Assembly: GCA_016219715.1 (NCBI GenBank) | Contig: JACRKX010000056.1 | Span: 1-45,998 of the forward strand | Direction: 5' to 3' | Length of the DNA stretch: 45,998 nt | Origin: Actinomycetota bacterium | GTDB lineage: Bacteria; Actinomycetota; Thermoleophilia; Solirubrobacterales; JACPNS01 | Part shown: piece by piece, positions 11,294 to 45,998 of the stretch | Layout of the letters: each line of letters starts with the position of its first letter | How positions within the stretch are numbered: the stretch's first letter is position 1 | Program-made: the position numbers and the translations under genes | Notes under the pieces: generated by a model | What the model was told of the DNA's origin: nothing | Seen by the model: the letters and a program-made list of their open reading frames with translations, nothing else | The model's database searches: none

Positions 11294-11722
11294 CTACTGC
11301 GCGGCCGTCAGGTCGGTGCGCAACGTGACCGCGTCGCGCAGGTAGACGTGGCTGGGAACGTGATCGGCCGGCGCGTAGTAGTGCAGCATCAATCGAATCG
11401 CGCGCGGCAGCGCCCCGGGCACGTCGATCTCGCGCGCGCACAGCAGTGGCACCGAGTTCAGACCGATACGGCGCGCCGCGACGGCCGGAAACTGATCGTT
11501 CAGGTCATCGGTGCAGGTGAAGATGCAGCTGACAAGGGCGTTCGGCGTGAGATCGTTGCGCTTGAGCACCTCGACGACAAGCTCCTCGGTTACGGCGAGG
11601 ATCTCGTCTTCGGTGTTGGCCACGGCGGTCGTAGCCCCACGCAGGGCAAACAGGCGCAGCCCGCTGGACCAGGCGGGCTGGTCGTCGCTGGATTCTGCGG
11701 CTGTGCTGCTCTTCTCGATCAT
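11294..11722 (-). CDS. aroH: Chorismate mutase, AroH (monofunctional) type
   Basis: This enzyme rearranges chorismate to prephenate. The protein is 142 residues, near the 127 of the Bacillus-type trimeric enzyme, with about 15 extra N-terminal residues. FALRGATTAVANTEDEI holds the N-terminal active-site Arg, IFTCTDDLNDQFPAVAARRIG follows, CAREIDVPGALPRAIRLMLHYY carries the conserved Glu and Arg, and VYLRDAVTLRTDL closes the fold. The ATG at 11722 overlaps the rluB stop as ATGA, so it is translationally coupled to rluB. Upstream in-frame sequence belongs to the rluB region and was rejected as N-terminus. Confidence 0.95.
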   Translation of the reverse strand: MIEKSSTAAESSDDQPAWSSGLRLFALRGATTAVANTEDEILAVTEELVVEVLKRNDLTPNALVSCIFTCTDDLNDQFPAVAARRIGLNSVPLLCAREIDVPGALPRAIRLMLHYYAPADHVPSHVYLRDAVTLRTDLTAAQ

Positions 11723-12528
11723 TTCTTGTTTGGCTTGCGCGATTGCGATGACTTGGCGGCCGGTCTCCGGCCGCCGGTCTCCTTCGCGCCGGCCGGGCGC
11801 TTGCGCTTCGGTGAGCGCATCCGCACCGGCTCCTCGACATTCTGCCAAAGCCGTTCGACCTCCTCGGGCGAAAGCCGGCGCGCCGTGCCGAGCTTCAGCC
11901 GGCCGAGCTCAAGCGAACCGAAGGCAATCCGCTGCAGCTCGCCGACGTCACGGCCGATCGCCTCGCACATCCGGCGGATCTGCCGGTTGCGACCTTCCTT
12001 GATCGTGATCAGGAACTCCCGGGTCGCCGTCTTGGCCACCTCGGCGCGGCGAGTCTTGCCATCGTCGAGTTCGACGCCACGCGCGAGGCGCTCGAGTTCG
12101 GCATCGGTCAGTGGCGCGCCGCGGCGCACGCGCACGCGATAGGTCTTGGGCACGCCATAGCTCGGGTGGCTGAGCTTGTTGGCGAGCTCGCCGTCGTTGG
12201 TGACCAGCATCAGACCGCTGCTGTTGGCGTCGAGCCGCCCTACGGGATACAGACGCTTCTCGCTGCCGATCAGGTCGACAACCGTCTGGCGGCCCTCGGG
12301 GTCGGATGCCGTCGAGATCACGCCCAGTGGCTTGTTTACCGCATAGACAACGGTGCCCTCAACTGCGACACGGTCGCCGTCGACGGTGATCTCGTTGCGG
12401 TCGGAGACGTCTTTCGCGGGATCGGTGACGGTCTTGCCGTCGACCGTCACACGGCCGTCGAAGATCAGCTGCTCGGCCGCCCGGCGCGAGGCGACTCCGG
12501 CGTGGGCGATGTATTTGGCGAGGCGCAT
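11719..12528 (-). CDS. rluB: 23S rRNA pseudouridine synthase, RluB/RsuA family
   Basis: This enzyme isomerises a uridine to pseudouridine in rRNA. The protein is 269 residues from ATG 12528 (MRLAKYIAHAGVASRRAAEQL), which is the canonical start; an extension of 10 residues upstream is not supported. Residues 1-60 are an S4 RNA-binding domain. The catalytic motif LYPVGRLDANSSGLMLVTNDGEL (catalytic Asp) is near 100-122, and LTIKEGRNRQIRRMCEAIG is the conserved helix. The C-terminus is a basic Lys/Arg/Ser tail (about 235-269) likely to touch RNA. It is coupled to aroH by ATGA. In many genomes scpB-rluB-cmk-der are neighbours; here rlmN is interposed on the other strand. Confidence 0.95.
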   Translation of the reverse strand: MRLAKYIAHAGVASRRAAEQLIFDGRVTVDGKTVTDPAKDVSDRNEITVDGDRVAVEGTVVYAVNKPLGVISTASDPEGRQTVVDLIGSEKRLYPVGRLDANSSGLMLVTNDGELANKLSHPSYGVPKTYRVRVRRGAPLTDAELERLARGVELDDGKTRRAEVAKTATREFLITIKEGRNRQIRRMCEAIGRDVGELQRIAFGSLELGRLKLGTARRLSPEEVERLWQNVEEPVRMRSPKRKRPAGAKETGGRRPAAKSSQSRKPNKK

Positions 12529-12559
12529 GGAACCCGTAAGCCTAGGTGCGAGCACCACC

Positions 12560-12565
12560 TACCGT
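12560..12565 (+). promoter_or_regulatory. Leaderless-type -10 element before rlmN
   Basis: TACCGT ends eight bases before the rlmN ATG. There is no Shine-Dalgarno sequence. A TANNNT box at this distance would start the transcript at or next to the ATG. Confidence 0.4.
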
Positions 12566-12573
12566 TAGCGGGG

Positions 12574-13575
12574 ATGGATCTCGACCTGCTGAAAGACACC
12601 CTCGCCGAGCTGGGCGAACCCGCCTACCGTGCCGGCCAGGTGTGGGAGTGGACGGCACGTGGCGCCGGTGGCTACGCCGACATGACCAACCTGCCGGCAG
12701 GCCTGCGCGCGCAGCTAGAAGAGCGCGTCCCGTTCAGCACGCTCGAACTGGTCGATCAGGCCGAGTCGCGAGACGGCACCGTGAAGGCCCTCTTTCACAC
12801 CGCCGACGGGCGCCCCGTCGAAGCCGTGTTGATGCGGTACCAAGACGGCCGCCGATCGATCTGCGTGTCGAGCCAGTGCGGCTGCCCGCTGACCTGCACG
12901 TTCTGCGCGACAGGCACGATGGCGTTCGGCCGCAATCTCACGACCAGCGAGATTCTCGACCAGGCACTGTTCTTCCGCCGCATCGAACCGATCGACCACT
13001 GCGTGTTCATGGGCATGGGAGAGCCGATGATGAACATCGAGAACGTTCTGGCCGCCTGCGAGAAGCTGCCCGACGTCGGCGTGACCAACCGCCGTACCAC
13101 GATCTCCACTGTCGGGTGGATCCCCGGCATGAAACAGTTCCTCGCCCAGGATCGCCCGATCCGGCTGGCCCTCTCGCTGCACGCGGCCGACCCCGAGCTG
13201 CGGTCGCGGATCATGCCGGTCAACGACCGCTACCCGTTGCCCGACGTGCTCGAACTGTGCGTCAAGCACTGGCGCGAGACCAATCGCAAAGTTTTCATCG
13301 AGTACGTGATGTTGGCCGGCGTCAACGACCACACCAAGCACGCCCAGCAGCTGGCCGCCGCGCTCACGCCGCACGAGGCGTTCAAGGTCAACCTGATCCC
13401 GTACAACCCCACCGGCACGGGCTACGAAGGATCGGGCCGCACCACGATCGGCGCGTTTCGCGACGCCCTGCAACGGGCCGGGGTGCCGGCGACCGTGCGC
13501 CTGACGCGCGGCCGCGACATCGCCGCGGCCTGCGGCCAGCTAGTGGCCGATCGCGAAACGACCAGCGCTGCCTAG
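12574..13575 (+). CDS. rlmN: Dual-specificity 23S rRNA A2503 / tRNA A37 methyltransferase RlmN
   Basis: This radical-SAM methyltransferase acts on C2 of adenosine. The protein is 333 residues from ATG 12574, which fits the family start (MDLDLLKDTLAELGEPAYRAGQVWEW). The iron-sulfur motif CGCPLTCTFCATG (CxxxCxxC) is at about 107-119, followed by GRNLTTSEILDQ, FMGMGEPMMNIENV, ISTVGWIPGM and RLALSLHAADPELR. A C-terminal AACGQL carries the second catalytic Cys. It is divergent from rluB (45 bases between starts) and convergent with scpB. A 17-bp direct repeat begins on its stop codon. Confidence 0.98.
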   Translation: MDLDLLKDTLAELGEPAYRAGQVWEWTARGAGGYADMTNLPAGLRAQLEERVPFSTLELVDQAESRDGTVKALFHTADGRPVEAVLMRYQDGRRSICVSSQCGCPLTCTFCATGTMAFGRNLTTSEILDQALFFRRIEPIDHCVFMGMGEPMMNIENVLAACEKLPDVGVTNRRTTISTVGWIPGMKQFLAQDRPIRLALSLHAADPELRSRIMPVNDRYPLPDVLELCVKHWRETNRKVFIEYVMLAGVNDHTKHAQQLAAALTPHEAFKVNLIPYNPTGTGYEGSGRTTIGAFRDALQRAGVPATVRLTRGRDIAAACGQLVADRETTSAA

Positions 13576-13695: not shown

Positions 13696-13929
13696 AAGCC
13701 AGCTTTGCTGAGTCCTGCGGCGCAGCTTGCATGAGAGGCTCTTGGCTCAATCACTCGCGGTCGCGCCCGCTGTCTCAAAAACTCGAAACTGCCTCTTGTC
13801 CCATCCATTTACTTCCGGAGGACCGAGTGTGTTCCGAAATCCTTCACAAGGTTTATCGACTACCAGCATGCCCAACTGATCCCCATTTCGAGGTAAATAC
13901 GGACATTCGTTCGAGGGGCCACCACCGCA

Positions 13930-13947
13930 CCCCGGAAGGGAGCGGGG
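13930..13947 (-). terminator. Possible scpB terminator hairpin
   Basis: A CCCCG/CGGGG stem (5 bp) with an 8-base loop lies about 35 bases past the scpB stop. The T-run is absent. Confidence 0.3.
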
Positions 13948-13981
13948 CCTGCTGCGCCGGCCCTGGCCGACGCGGATCGAA

Positions 13982-14791
13982 TCAGCCTTGCGGCTGCGGG
14001 CTCGCTGCTTCGCGCTGCTCGCCGGCTTTGAGAAGCCGTTCGCGCAGGTCTCGCTCGTCGTCGGGCGACGGGTCGAACGCGCCGACGTCGGGCAGCGCGT
14101 CTAGGCCTTCAAGCCCGAAGAGACGGTCGAAGAGCTCGGTGGTCTTGAACGCGCCGACGTCGGGCAGCGCGTCTAGGCCTTCAAGCCCGAAGAGACGGTC
14201 GAAGAGCTCGGTGGTCTTGAAGATCACGGCGCCGAACTGCGAGCGGCCGGCATCGGCGATCAGGCCTCGCTCGAGCAGGGTGCCGAGCGCGCTTTCGCTG
14301 CTGACACCGCGAATCCGCGCTATCTCGGGGCGGCTTACGGGCTGTAGGTACGCGATCACCGCCAGGCACTCGGCCTGAGCCTGGGTGAGCGGCGGCGTGC
14401 GCGGCTTCGCGAACAGGCAGCGCGCGGCAGCATCGCTGCCGGGGGCGCTTGCCAGCGTGTAACCGCCCGAGATACGGCGCAGGACCACGCCGCGCTGGCC
14501 GGCTTGGCAGTCTTCTTCGAGTGCCGAGAGCGCCTGCTCGACCTGGGATTCGCTGGATTCGCAGGCTTCGACGAGCTGCGCGACCGTGAGCGGATCGGGC
14601 GACAGGAAAAGCAGCGCTTCGATCTTCGCCGGCAGGGCGAGACGGTGGGTCTCGGGGACGCCGGCGACTGGGTCGGGTACCTCGGGACGCGGGTCTGCCG
14701 GCACGCGCTCGGCGTCTCGCTCGGCACCGCCCTCGGCGAAGACCTCCGCGGCGCCCTCAGCACCGCCCTCTACGACCAACTCGTCGCTCAT
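13982..14791 (-). CDS. scpB: Segregation and condensation protein B (ScpB), with internal 24-residue duplication
   Basis: ScpB is the winged-helix partner of ScpA in the bacterial condensin complex with SMC. The protein is 269 residues, longer than the common 180-220. After a Glu/Ala-rich N-terminus (1-45), PAKIEALLFLSPDPLTVAQLVEA opens winged helix 1. LTQAQAECLAVIAYLQPVSRPEIARIRGV is the classic ScpB motif of winged helix 2. The C-terminal segment KTTELFDRLFGLEGLDALPDVGAF occurs twice in tandem, at 192-215 and 216-239, encoded by an exact 72-bp repeat. Normally it occurs once and ends the domain. Its ATG overlaps the scpA stop (ATGA). Confidence 0.95.
   Translation of the reverse strand: MSDELVVEGGAEGAAEVFAEGGAERDAERVPADPRPEVPDPVAGVPETHRLALPAKIEALLFLSPDPLTVAQLVEACESSESQVEQALSALEEDCQAGQRGVVLRRISGGYTLASAPGSDAAARCLFAKPRTPPLTQAQAECLAVIAYLQPVSRPEIARIRGVSSESALGTLLERGLIADAGRSQFGAVIFKTTELFDRLFGLEGLDALPDVGAFKTTELFDRLFGLEGLDALPDVGAFDPSPDDERDLRERLLKAGEQREAASPQPQG
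14075..14218. repeat. Exact 72-bp tandem duplication inside scpB
   Basis: Bases 14075-14146 and 14147-14218 are identical, and the first three bases of the unit recur at 14219-14221. The unit is a whole number of codons (24), so the frame is kept. Zero divergence points to a recent event or to an assembly artefact. Confidence 0.95.
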
Positions 14792-15843
14792 GCGGCGGCC
14801 CTGCCGCCGGCCGAGAAGACGTCGATCGGACCGAATGCCTCTGGCTGGCTCCAGTCGGCTTCGCCGAGCTTGTATAGCTCGAGCAGCGCCCAGACCGTGA
14901 GCGCCTCGGTGAGGCGGTCGGCGCCCTCGACGGCGTCGTCGAAGTCGAAGTGGCTCGCTCGCTTGAGAAGGGTGCGGATGTGCGTTAGCCGTTGCTCGAG
15001 CGTGACCCGCGCGGCTCGCAGGTGCGGCGTGGTCAGCGGCTCGGGCTCGCGCAACAGATCGCCGATCGCGCGGGCGAGCGACTCGGCGTTGTAGACCTGA
15101 CCGACGTTCTCGTAGCTGATCGTGCGTAACTTGCGCGGCAACGGAGCGCTGCGGTAGCGGAACGGCAGCTCGGCGTGGTAGCGCTCGCGCAGCCAGCCCG
15201 CGAGCTTGTTGTAGCGGTGGTACTCGAGCATGCGGGCGAGCAGCTCTTCGGCGGCCTCTTCGGGGCCGAGGTCGAGCTCGAGCCCGCCCTCTTCGTCGCG
15301 CGGCAACATCAGGCGGCTCTTCAGCTCGAGCAGGGCAGCGATCAGCACGACGAACTCGGTGACTGGCTCGAGCTCGATCTCACCGCGCGCCTCGAGAATC
15401 TCGACGTAGCCGAGCACGATCTGCGCCAGGTCTACTTCGAGCAGGTCGATCTCTTCGCGCATGACCAGCTCGAGCAACAGATCGAACGGGCCGTGAAAGA
15501 CCTCGAGGTCGAGTTGCAGCGCGTCGAAGCGCGGGGTGCCCTCGCCGATCGCGCTGACCGCGTGGTCTGGCTCGACACCGGCGGGACCGTCTGGCTCGAC
15601 GGGGGCAGGTGCTTCAGACTCGGGCGCCTGGGCGGCCTCTGGCTGGTCCGTCGCCGGCCCAGCTGCGCCGGTGCTCGCGGGAGCGCCCTCGATCAAACCG
15701 GCGTCGCGCGCGATCGCCTCGTCGACATCGAGCGGGCCGTGGACCGGCGGCTCGGCGATCGAAGCGACATCGTTGTCAATGGAACCGGCGGCGATGGCGT
15801 CGTTTCCGGGCAGGCCGGCAGTCGGGGCGTCGAATTCGCTCAC
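14788..15843 (-). CDS. scpA: Segregation and condensation protein A (ScpA) with long acidic N-terminal extension
   Basis: ScpA is the kleisin subunit that bridges the SMC heads. The protein is 351 residues, about 90-100 longer than usual. Residues 1 to about 100 are rich in Ala, Pro, Glu and Asp with no recognisable fold. The kleisin N-domain then starts at LEVFHGPFDLLLELVMREEIDLLEVDLAQIVLGY (conserved FDLLL motif), continues with ALLELKSRLMLPRDE, and ends in a winged-helix C-domain (VTLEQRLTHIRTLLKR, ALLELYKLGEADWSQ). The start is GTG at 15843. It follows trpS by four bases and overlaps scpB by ATGA. Confidence 0.93.
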   Translation of the reverse strand: MSEFDAPTAGLPGNDAIAAGSIDNDVASIAEPPVHGPLDVDEAIARDAGLIEGAPASTGAAGPATDQPEAAQAPESEAPAPVEPDGPAGVEPDHAVSAIGEGTPRFDALQLDLEVFHGPFDLLLELVMREEIDLLEVDLAQIVLGYVEILEARGEIELEPVTEFVVLIAALLELKSRLMLPRDEEGGLELDLGPEEAAEELLARMLEYHRYNKLAGWLRERYHAELPFRYRSAPLPRKLRTISYENVGQVYNAESLARAIGDLLREPEPLTTPHLRAARVTLEQRLTHIRTLLKRASHFDFDDAVEGADRLTEALTVWALLELYKLGEADWSQPEAFGPIDVFSAGGRAAA

Positions 15844-40649: not shown

Positions 40650-41819
40650 TCAGTTACCGCCCACGGCGGGCGCTCCTGTGCCGGCTCCGGGCGTCGCGGC
40701 CCCAGGCGTGGTCACGCCCGGCCCTGTGGCTCCGGGCGTACTGACGGGCTGCTGTACCTGCGGCGCGGTCGGCTGAGGCTGCTGCACGACCGGCGCCGCG
40801 GCGCCGGTGTCTGGCACGGTGGATGGCGGCGTGGCCTGCGGCTGCGCGGCCGCGGGCTGCTCTGCGACCGGGGTGGGCGCCGTGTAAGTGCGTATCGCGC
40901 GCGCCGGATCGCCGCCGCGCGTACTCAGATACTTGAACTGCTCGGGCTGGGGCATGACCATTCCTAGTTTCTTCGCCAGGCGCGCGATTCTTTCCGAGGA
41001 TTCGAGCTGCGCCACCTTGCTGCGGATGATCGTGTTCTCACGCTGCAACTCCAGCGAACGCTGCGCGTAGCGGCCGTAGCCGTCGCCGGCCTCGAGTTTG
41101 CCGACGTTGATGTAGATCAACCCCGCGGCCAGCAGGCCGGCGACGACGATCAAGATCCGGCCACGCGCGGCGGCCTGCGCGCCCTGTCCGGCCGGCAGCC
41201 GATCGAGCCCACCGGTGACGACGCGTAGAACCGGTTTGGCGACTGCCGCTGCCGGACGCGCGACGTCGACCATTGCCTTGCCGACAGTGAGCGCGGCTGC
41301 ACCCCCGGCGCTGGCGACTGCACGCCCGCCGTACGGACTGCCGCCCAGCGACGGCGAACGATTGGCGCTGGAACGCACCGTCGCCGCACGTCCGCGCGCG
41401 ATGTTCTGGTCGAGCGCACGCAGCGACTCGCGGCGCGTGGCGGCCGAGCGATCACGTGTGGTGGCCGCCGAGCGATCACGTGTGGTGGCCGCCGAGCGAT
41501 CGCGGGTGGTGGCGGCCGGGCGCGTGACAGGACGCTTGGCACGGCTCCCGGCCGTGCGTGCGATCGGACGCTTGGCACGAGTTCCGGCCGTACGCGCTGA
41601 GCCGCGCCGACCATCGCCGCGAGAGGCACGGATCTCGGTCTCTTCACGCGAGGCACGGACCCCGGCGTCTCCGCGAGACGCGCGGATTTCGGCGCCGCGC
41701 AGCTCGCCGAGGTACTCGCGCACGGCCGGCGTGGCGCCGCCGCGAAAGCTCTGGTTGACGGCGCTCGAGCGCACCGGCGCCGGGCGTTTTGCCCGCGAGG
41801 TAGTGCCGAAGCGCCTCAC
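40650..41819 (-). CDS. ftsL: FtsL-like divisome protein with long repetitive basic N-terminus
   Basis: The protein is 389 residues from a GTG at 41819 that overlaps the rsmH stop as GTGA; the longer frame into rsmH was rejected. Position between rsmH and ftsI and the topology support FtsL: a transmembrane helix (ILIVVAGLLAAGLIYINV, about 223-241) followed by a coiled coil (RSLELQRENTIIRSKVAQLESSERIARLAKKLGM) ending before a Pro-rich tail. It is about three times the usual 90-130 residues. The cytoplasmic N-terminus (1-220) is Arg/Ala/Thr-rich with repeats such as ATTRDRSA (three times), GTRAKRP/GSRAKRP and IRASRGD. The C-terminus (about 310-389) is Pro/Gln/Ala/Gly-rich. FtsL is small and poorly conserved, so identity rests mainly on place and shape. 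Confidence 0.8.
   Translation of the reverse strand: MRRFGTTSRAKRPAPVRSSAVNQSFRGGATPAVREYLGELRGAEIRASRGDAGVRASREETEIRASRGDGRRGSARTAGTRAKRPIARTAGSRAKRPVTRPAATTRDRSAATTRDRSAATTRDRSAATRRESLRALDQNIARGRAATVRSSANRSPSLGGSPYGGRAVASAGGAAALTVGKAMVDVARPAAAVAKPVLRVVTGGLDRLPAGQGAQAAARGRILIVVAGLLAAGLIYINVGKLEAGDGYGRYAQRSLELQRENTIIRSKVAQLESSERIARLAKKLGMVMPQPEQFKYLSTRGGDPARAIRTYTAPTPVAEQPAAAQPQATPPSTVPDTGAAAPVVQQPQPTAPQVQQPVSTPGATGPGVTTPGAATPGAGTGAPAVGGN
41437..41508. repeat. 24-bp tandem repeat (three copies) in the ftsL-like gene
   Basis: Units at 41437-41460, 41461-41484 and 41485-41508 are nearly identical, with a degenerate fourth copy after them. Each encodes eight residues of the form ATTRDRSA, so copy number can change without loss of frame. 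Confidence 0.9.
41530..41601. repeat. 36-bp tandem repeat (two copies) in the ftsL-like gene
   Basis: GGACGCTTGGCACG-type units at 41530-41565 and 41566-41601 differ at a few positions and encode twelve-residue repeats containing SRAKRP/TRAKRP. Confidence 0.7.
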
Positions 41820-42805
41820 AGCCCGATCTCTCCTGGGTCCGGGATGCGGTCGGCCGCGATCTTGCGGGCAACGCGGAGCTTGCCGCTCTTGGCACGCGGG
41901 TTGTGCGCGATCTCGCCGGGCGTCGGCGCGATCGCGCGACGGCTGACGAGCTCGGCCTGCGGCGTGCGACCGCAGGTGCAGATCGGAAACTCCGGCGGAC
42001 ACACACAACCGCGAGCAAGATCGGCGAAGTAGCGCTTCACCGCGCGGTCTTCGAGCGAATGAAAGCTGATCACGGCGAGCCGGCCTCCGATCGAGAGTGC
42101 CTCCCACGCCAGCGGCAGGGCGCGTTCGAGCTGGCCGAGCTCGTCGTTGACCGCGATGCGAATCGCCTGGAAAACGCGCTTGGCCGGATGGCCGCCGGCA
42201 AATCGAGCCGGCACGGGCACCGCCGCGACGATCGCGTCGACAAGCTGCTGAGTGGTCGTGATCGGCCGCTCATCGCGGCGGCGGACGATCTCGCGCGCGA
42301 TCTGCCTTGAATAGCGCTCCTCGCCATACCTGTCGAAGGTGTTCGACATGCGGCGCTCATCCCATCCATTGACGAGATCGGCGGCGCTGAACTCCTGGCC
42401 AGGGTCCATGCGCATGTCGAGCGGCGCGTCGTATACGTAGGAGAAGCCGCGGTCGAGCGCGTCGATCTGGAACGACGACACGCCGAGGTCGAGCAGGATC
42501 ATGTCCGCGTGCGTTCCCTCAGCGACCAGCTCGGCGAGCGCCGCGCCGAAGTCGGCCTGCACGAAGCGCGTCTCGCACCTGGCCTCGGCGGCGAACTCCT
42601 CGAAGCGCGAGCGTGCGGCCGGATCGCGGTCGATGCCGATCACGGTGCCGTCAGGGCTCACGCGATCGGCGAGCAGGCGTGCGTGACCGCCACCGCCGAA
42701 CGTGCAGTCGACGACCGTCTCGCCGGGCCGCGGATCGGTCAGCTCGATCACCTCACCGGCCAGCACTGGTACGTGCTCGCGCGTCATCTCAAGCAGGATT
42801 GACAT
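41816..42805 (-). CDS. rsmH: 16S rRNA (cytosine1402-N4)-methyltransferase
   Basis: RsmH (MraW) methylates N4 of C1402 of 16S rRNA using S-adenosylmethionine. The protein is 329 residues. HVPVLAGEVIELTDPRPGETVVDCTFGGGGHARLLAD contains the SAM-binding motif; LLDLGVSSFQIDALDRGFSYVYDAPLDMRMDP and ALPLAWEALSIGGRLAVISFHSLEDRAVKRYF are family signatures, and NPRAKSGKLRVARKI closes it. Two starts are possible: ATG 42805 (GGAG ten bases upstream, overlapping mraZ by 17) or ATG 42787. The first is used. Confidence 0.96.
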   Translation of the reverse strand: MSILLEMTREHVPVLAGEVIELTDPRPGETVVDCTFGGGGHARLLADRVSPDGTVIGIDRDPAARSRFEEFAAEARCETRFVQADFGAALAELVAEGTHADMILLDLGVSSFQIDALDRGFSYVYDAPLDMRMDPGQEFSAADLVNGWDERRMSNTFDRYGEERYSRQIAREIVRRRDERPITTTQQLVDAIVAAVPVPARFAGGHPAKRVFQAIRIAVNDELGQLERALPLAWEALSIGGRLAVISFHSLEDRAVKRYFADLARGCVCPPEFPICTCGRTPQAELVSRRAIAPTPGEIAHNPRAKSGKLRVARKIAADRIPDPGEIGL

Positions 42806-45260: not shown

Positions 45261-45973
45261 ACGCGGCTCACCCGCAGACAGAGCAGCGCGCCGAGCAGCA
45301 TCAGGCCGCTGGCCACGAACATCAGCAGCGCCGTCGGAGCGAAGAGCAGCGCGCCCGAGACCGCGCCCGGCGCCGCAAGTTCGGCCAGAAGCCCCGCCGC
45401 CGGAGGGATCACGCCGACGATCAACGCCGTGAACCGCGCCTGGACGGTCGCCGAACGCGCGTCGGCGTGCGCGGCGTCTCGCGCGCGGAAGGCGTCGGCA
45501 AGCTCGCGCGCCAGCCGCGCGAGATCGGCACCACTTCGCCGATGCAGCTCGATCGCGCCGGTCAGAGCGTCGACACGGTCCGACGCCGTGCGGTCACGCA
45601 GAGCGGCCAGGGCGTCTTCGGTCGTGCGCCCGAGCGTCAGCTCGGCGGCTACCTTTGCCAGCTCTGTCGAAAGCGGATGCGGAACCGCCGTGTCGGCTTC
45701 GAGCAGTGCGGCGCGCACCGATCGCCCCGCCGACAGCGATGATGCGAGCGCCAGGGCGAGCTCGGCCGCGCCGGCATCGATCCGCGCGGCGTAGCGGGCA
45801 CGGCGCGCCCGCAGGAGCAACCCTACGGCCGGCGGCGCGAACACAGCGCCCAGCAGTGCCCCGCCCAAGCCAAGCAGCGCCAGACCGATCGCCGCGCCGG
45901 CAAGCGATGCCGCCACTTTCAGCCTTGCACCCGCCCCCGGTGGCAGCCGTCCGTCGGCGCCGGCGGAGCGCAC
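45257..45973 (-). CDS. TadB-like type II/IV secretion membrane protein, 5' end uncertain
   Basis: At least 238 residues are visible from a GTG at 45973. The frame stays open to the window edge without a stop, so the true start may lie beyond it. Two N-terminal hydrophobic segments (AASLAGAAIGLALLGLGGALLG, AVFAPPAVGLLLRARRARY) precede the T2SSF domain (AAELALALASSLSAGRSVRAALLEA, LTGAIELHRRSGADLARLARELADAFRARDAAHADARSATVQARFTA). Two C-terminal segments follow. It pairs with the TadC-like gene by a four-base overlap. It is shorter than the usual TadB of about 280-320 residues, in keeping with a missing start. Confidence 0.82.
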   Translation of the reverse strand: MRSAGADGRLPPGAGARLKVAASLAGAAIGLALLGLGGALLGAVFAPPAVGLLLRARRARYAARIDAGAAELALALASSLSAGRSVRAALLEADTAVPHPLSTELAKVAAELTLGRTTEDALAALRDRTASDRVDALTGAIELHRRSGADLARLARELADAFRARDAAHADARSATVQARFTALIVGVIPPAAGLLAELAAPGAVSGALLFAPTALLMFVASGLMLLGALLCLRVSRV

Positions 45974-45998
45974 GATCCCGCGCCAGCCCGCGAGCGTC

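What the first reader, a model, noticed from the sequence alone, without database searches (positions are those of the whole stretch)
14075..14218. Exact 72-bp in-frame duplication in the ScpB C-terminal winged helix
The segment that normally closes ScpB is present twice with no base difference. It either adds a second copy of the terminal helix and changes contact with ScpA/SMC, or it is very recent or an assembly error.
Basis: seen in the sequence. Interest (0 to 1): 0.5.

Follow-up and report, generated by a model that had tools for sequence, protein, structure and literature searches.

The report
Recent private duplication inside ScpB gene
One uncultured bacterium's assembled genome carries an exact, in-frame 24-amino-acid repeat near the end of its chromosome-segregation protein ScpB; none of the relatives that were read has it, so it looks like an ordinary recent DNA copying accident and not a new kind of protein.

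Summary
Window 14075-14146 and 14147-14218 are identical 72-bp tandem copies (exact match 75 bp) inside an open scpB frame (13982-14791, minus strand; PF04079). They add a second KTTELFDRLFGLEGLDALPDVGAF.

A tail conserved in relatives (consensus DPSPEEEGELRERLLKAGEQR) follows, here 24 residues further out.

All 37 distinct relatives readable at this place have one unit, including 4 of 4 same-genus genomes. The nearest differs from this unit at 12 of 72 bases; the two copies differ at 0. The event looks private and young.

A plain assembler error is unlikely: no 76-base word repeats here, and two of five contig ends searched overlap another contig exactly, by 141 and 133 bp, suggesting a k-mer graph with k above 75. 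Reads were not available, so chimeric reads or a mixed population remain possible.

Best account: slippage or illegitimate recombination between 3-bp TTC repeats, in frame, probably near-neutral. The structural effect is untested; both AlphaFold models were too poor.

The parts
13982..14791 (-). scpB, 269 aa, intact open frame containing the duplication
   Evidence: PF04079 148.2 bits, TIGR00281 104 bits; matches chains named ScpB, 3w6j_B and 4i98_B
14147..14218 (-). first copy in protein order, residues 192-215 KTTELFDRLFGLEGLDALPDVGAF; follows the native upstream sequence GAVIF
14075..14146 (-). second copy in protein order, residues 216-239, identical DNA; precedes the tail DPSPDDERD
14147..14149 (-). 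3-bp TTC (GAA on +) at the junction between the copies; the same triplet stands at 14075-14077 and 14219-14221, so the exact match is 75 and not 72 bp
   Evidence: TRF array 14075-14221; 75-bp run; sequence
13985..14074 (-). C-terminal tail, residues 240-269; the first 21 residues hold 9 columns invariant in 19 aligned sequences
   Evidence: also seen
14788..15843 (-). upstream neighbour, ScpA-like ORF whose end overlaps the scpB start by 4 bp (named by eye from its sequence and position; not scanned against a family library)
   Evidence: ORF list

Best explanation
A recent, lineage-private, in-frame 72-bp tandem duplication in scpB of an uncultured bacterium, probably of the Thermoleophilia. 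Most likely a replication slippage or illegitimate recombination event joined two places that share TTC and so copied the 24 codons that end the second winged-helix domain (shown: the duplication, its frame and its 3-bp end homology; inferred: the mutational route; the domain parts are named from general knowledge of ScpB). The first copy keeps the native upstream context and probably closes the domain as usual, so that the second copy and the conserved tail hang further out (inferred, untested). With no base difference between the copies and no relative seen that shares it, the simplest view is a near-neutral or mildly harmful variant that is too young to have diverged and could be lost again by recombination between the copies.
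For: Exact two copies, in frame, no stop. One unit in 37 of 37 distinct relatives readable at this place, 4 of 4 same-genus genomes among them. In one search, 59 of 61 genomes match (the own one included) and only the own match runs through both copies without a stop; one other row crosses both (G025:C35, 29% identity, E 8.6e-4, three stops) and I take it for noise. In a class survey 274 of 299 genomes match; of the rows printed (the list was cut) only the own one covers the whole query, and 9 of 9 fetched matches that ran past the first copy have one unit. Nearest relative: 60 of 72 bases alike, 9 of 13 comparable fourfold sites different, against 72 of 72 between the copies. Precedent for new short tandem duplications in bacteria, in frame in a ribosomal protein gene: PMC8758062 (passages read); in E. 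coli: PMC6954433 (passages read).
Against: Reads could not be seen, so the junction is not proven. The genome is a 125-contig assembly, 86.41% complete and 4.03% contaminated. The duplications given in the passages of PMC6954433 are 2-19 bp long, arise in topA mutants, are said not to depend on existing repeats and to be unlikely polymerase errors, and that paper calls longer insertions outside repeats much rarer; so slippage over 3 bp is a guess. A 3-bp end match also occurs by chance. Exact identity could also reflect gene conversion between older copies.
Confidence: 0.73

Rival explanations
1. Assembly or library artefact: the cells have one copy, and the second came from chimeric reads or an assembler error.
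For: Fragmented assembly; perfect identity; all 37 distinct relatives readable here have one copy.
Against: No word of 76, 79, 99, 119 or 141 bases occurs twice in 13901-14400, so a graph with k above 75 is not ambiguous here. The window's right end overlaps the start of contig C68 by exactly 141 bp, and the end of contig C6 overlaps the end of C61 by exactly 133 bp, which suggests a large k; 141 is the largest k in MEGAHIT's default list as given in PMC9784204 (passage read). Against this argument: only 2 of 5 ends searched gave an overlap, the two lengths differ, and 36 ends compared directly gave none. No other exact tandem copy in 205,037 sampled bases of the genome.
Confidence: 0.15
2. 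Real but polymorphic (a form of the best explanation, so the odds overlap): the copy is present in only part of the sampled population and the assembler took the commoner path.
For: Exact tandem copies are readily lost by recombination (general knowledge); a metagenome contig stands for a population.
Against: No direct evidence either way; a search of the whole genome found this stretch once only, with no single-copy version on another contig, and no second assembly of the species turned up (may leave out very near genomes).
Confidence: 0.25
3. A selected change: the extra copy and the displaced tail alter ScpA binding or regulation of SMC in this lineage.
For: It is in frame in a gene whose product is required for Smc loading onto DNA in B. 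subtilis (PMC4442127, passages read).
Against: In-frame is a one-in-three outcome; no relative seen shares it; no divergence between the copies; the models cannot be trusted.
Confidence: 0.07

Closest known systems
ScpB, PF04079 / TIGR00281 (kite subunit of Smc-ScpAB)
   Same: Scores well above both cut-offs; detectable similarity to solved chains named ScpB; lies beside a ScpA-like ORF.
   Different: The end of the second winged helix is present twice; the conserved tail seen in this group starts 24 residues later. It does not reach the cut-off of the 'long form' model NF001106 (59 against 300 bits).
Short tandem duplications in bacterial genes: rpmH in Neisseria elongata (PMC8758062), topA mutants of E. 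coli (PMC6954433); passages read
   Same: Head-to-tail exact copy; in frame in the rpmH cases.
   Different: Here 72 bp; those in the passages I read are shorter, and they were shown by sequencing evolved or mutant lines.

Membership tests
ScpB (PF04079, TIGR00281) | profile match above the curated cut-off | tested here: met
   148.2 against 27.4 bits; 104 against 89.2 bits
ScpB (PF04079, TIGR00281) | adjacent scpA | tested here: inconclusive
   ORF 14788-15843 minus overlaps the scpB start by 4 bp and reads like ScpA; it was not scanned against a family library
ScpB (PF04079, TIGR00281) | binds ScpA as a dimer | not testable with these tools
   No complex prediction; single-chain models of low confidence
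short tandem duplication | two head-to-tail copies, single copy in relatives | tested here: met
short tandem duplication | present in the DNA of the cells (reads span it) | not testable with these tools
   No reads on hand; indirect support from word uniqueness and contig-end overlaps

The most novel reading that the evidence does not exclude
A lineage-specific ScpB in which a doubled closing segment moves a conserved C-terminal tail 24 residues outward and so changes how ScpAB meets the SMC heads, a natural experiment in SMC regulation.
Probability: 0.05. Interest if true: 0.4.

Novelty: new member of a known kind. Interest (0 to 1): 0.1.

Why it matters
If real, it shows that the end of ScpB's second winged helix can take an exact 24-residue insertion in a living population: a small, testable point about tolerance in a conserved chromosome-segregation protein. 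It shows no new mechanism or family. The more useful by-product may be the conserved C-terminal tail of ScpB in this bacterial group.

Tried and rejected
Structure prediction: the two-copy ScpB (19-sequence alignment) gave mean pLDDT 47.5, below 50 throughout residues 117-250. The single-copy relative L032 (18 sequences) gave 59.4, also weak in the second winged helix. The aligner left nearly all of the first copy without partners in the other rows, so the comparison says nothing about the effect of the insertion. No fold search was run.

DNA hairpins at the duplication ends as a cause: of three short stretches folded as DNA, the one at the tail-side end folds slightly better than its shuffles (z -1.46, 12 of 200 shuffles as good) and the other two do not (z 1.09 and 0.93). 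Not convincing.

A recurrent, class-wide duplication: not supported. One search's table was cut, so further rows were not seen; several printed rows that run a few residues past the first copy were not fetched; a duplication too diverged to align in one piece would be missed.

An assembly full of false tandem copies: not supported, 0 in 205,037 readable bases from 20 sampled G000 contigs. For comparison, 316,161 readable bases from 20 stretches of the four same-genus genomes (two of the 20 wholly masked) held one exact tandem copy, 42 bp.

Literature: eight searches. Their listings showed no paper on a duplicated end of ScpB; I claim no more than that.

Full report
What is there. The repeat is real in the sequence: two identical 72-bp copies, 14075-14146 and 14147-14218, with an exact self-match of 75 bp. 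They lie in the minus-strand frame 13982-14791, 269 aa, which is ScpB by PF04079 and TIGR00281 and by similarity to solved chains named ScpB. The added residues are a second KTTELFDRLFGLEGLDALPDVGAF. Both profile matches end inside the first copy (residues 211 and 214).

Where it comes from. The window is one whole contig (C57, 45,998 bases) of a 2.23-Mb, 125-contig assembly. The scpB ends of three of the four same-genus genomes are identical to those of named records L032-L034, whose titles say Actinomycetota, Thermoleophilaceae and Solirubrobacterales, so I place it in the Thermoleophilia (inference from the titles).

Relatives. Of the 51 loci L002-L052, one (L002) is the window's own and one (L052) breaks off before this place. 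The remaining 49 include 12 whose 3' end repeats that of a locus already counted, leaving 37 distinct ones; all 37 have one unit followed directly by the tail. The four same-genus genomes (L003-L006) are among them. In one search, 59 of 61 genomes matched, the own one included; only the own match runs through both copies without a stop. One other row there crosses both copies (G025:C35, 29% identity, E 8.6e-4, three stops); I left it out as noise. In the class survey 274 of 299 genomes matched; the printed list was cut, and within it only the own match covered the whole query. I fetched nine others whose matches ran past the first copy, and 9 of 9 had one unit.

Age. The unit of the nearest relative (L003) shares 60 of 72 bases, with 9 of 13 comparable fourfold sites changed. 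The copies here share 72 of 72. Unless gene conversion has kept them alike, the event is much younger than the split of these species.

Artefact or not. The assembly is not rich in such copies: none in 205,037 readable bases of 20 sampled contigs, one of them wholly masked. In the window itself one other exact tandem array was found by the same scan, 24-bp units at 41443. Words of 76 bases or longer that I tried (76, 79, 99, 119, 141) do not repeat in 13901-14400. Of five contig ends searched, one overlapped the start of another contig by exactly 141 bp and one overlapped another contig's end by exactly 133 bp (contig lengths); 36 ends compared directly showed none. A largest k of 141 is in the MEGAHIT default list quoted in PMC9784204 (passage read). 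The two overlap lengths disagree, so the assembler is a guess, but both exceed 75. On such a graph a false second copy would need false reads. I had no reads.

How it arose and what it does. The junction triplet TTC also stands at both outer ends, so slippage or illegitimate recombination over 3 bp would do; a 3-bp match is weak evidence, and PMC6954433 (passages read) describes new tandem duplications that do not depend on repeats. The insertion lies between the second winged helix and a tail conserved in the relatives (D240, P241, P243, R250, R252, L253, A256, G257 and R260 invariant in 19 sequences). ScpB binds the middle of ScpA as two molecules and is needed for Smc loading in B. subtilis (PMC7055376 and PMC4442127, passages read). 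Whether the extra copy changes that is open; the models were too poor.

Verdict. A confirmed, apparently private, young, in-frame tandem duplication, most likely real and ordinary. Low interest.

Noticed in passing
window 13985-14074; relatives: ScpB of this bacterial group carries a conserved C-terminal tail (consensus DPSPEEEGELRERLLKAGEQR) after the winged helix; its role was not looked up.
   Followed up: partly
window 41437-41522: A 24-bp tandem array, 3.6 copies, within ORF 40650-42107 (minus), in an arginine-rich stretch.
   Followed up: no
L075:9394-9478: An exact 42-bp tandem copy in same-genus genome G002, just upstream of a 623-aa transporter-like ORF; each unit holds the inverted pair GCAGCGGAG/CTCCGCTGC. 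It is probably between genes, though mechanical ORFs overlap it.
   Followed up: no
L063:5403-5872: Two repeats of about 235 bp, 86% alike, in another contig of this genome; perhaps a repetitive surface-type protein gene (a guess).
   Followed up: no
window 11719-13575: An rlmN-like gene on the plus strand lies between scpB and an rluB-like gene on the minus strand (named by eye from the ORFs).
   Followed up: no
window 45858-45998: The right end of the contig overlaps the start of contig C68 by exactly 141 bp, so the two are probably neighbours.
   Followed up: partly
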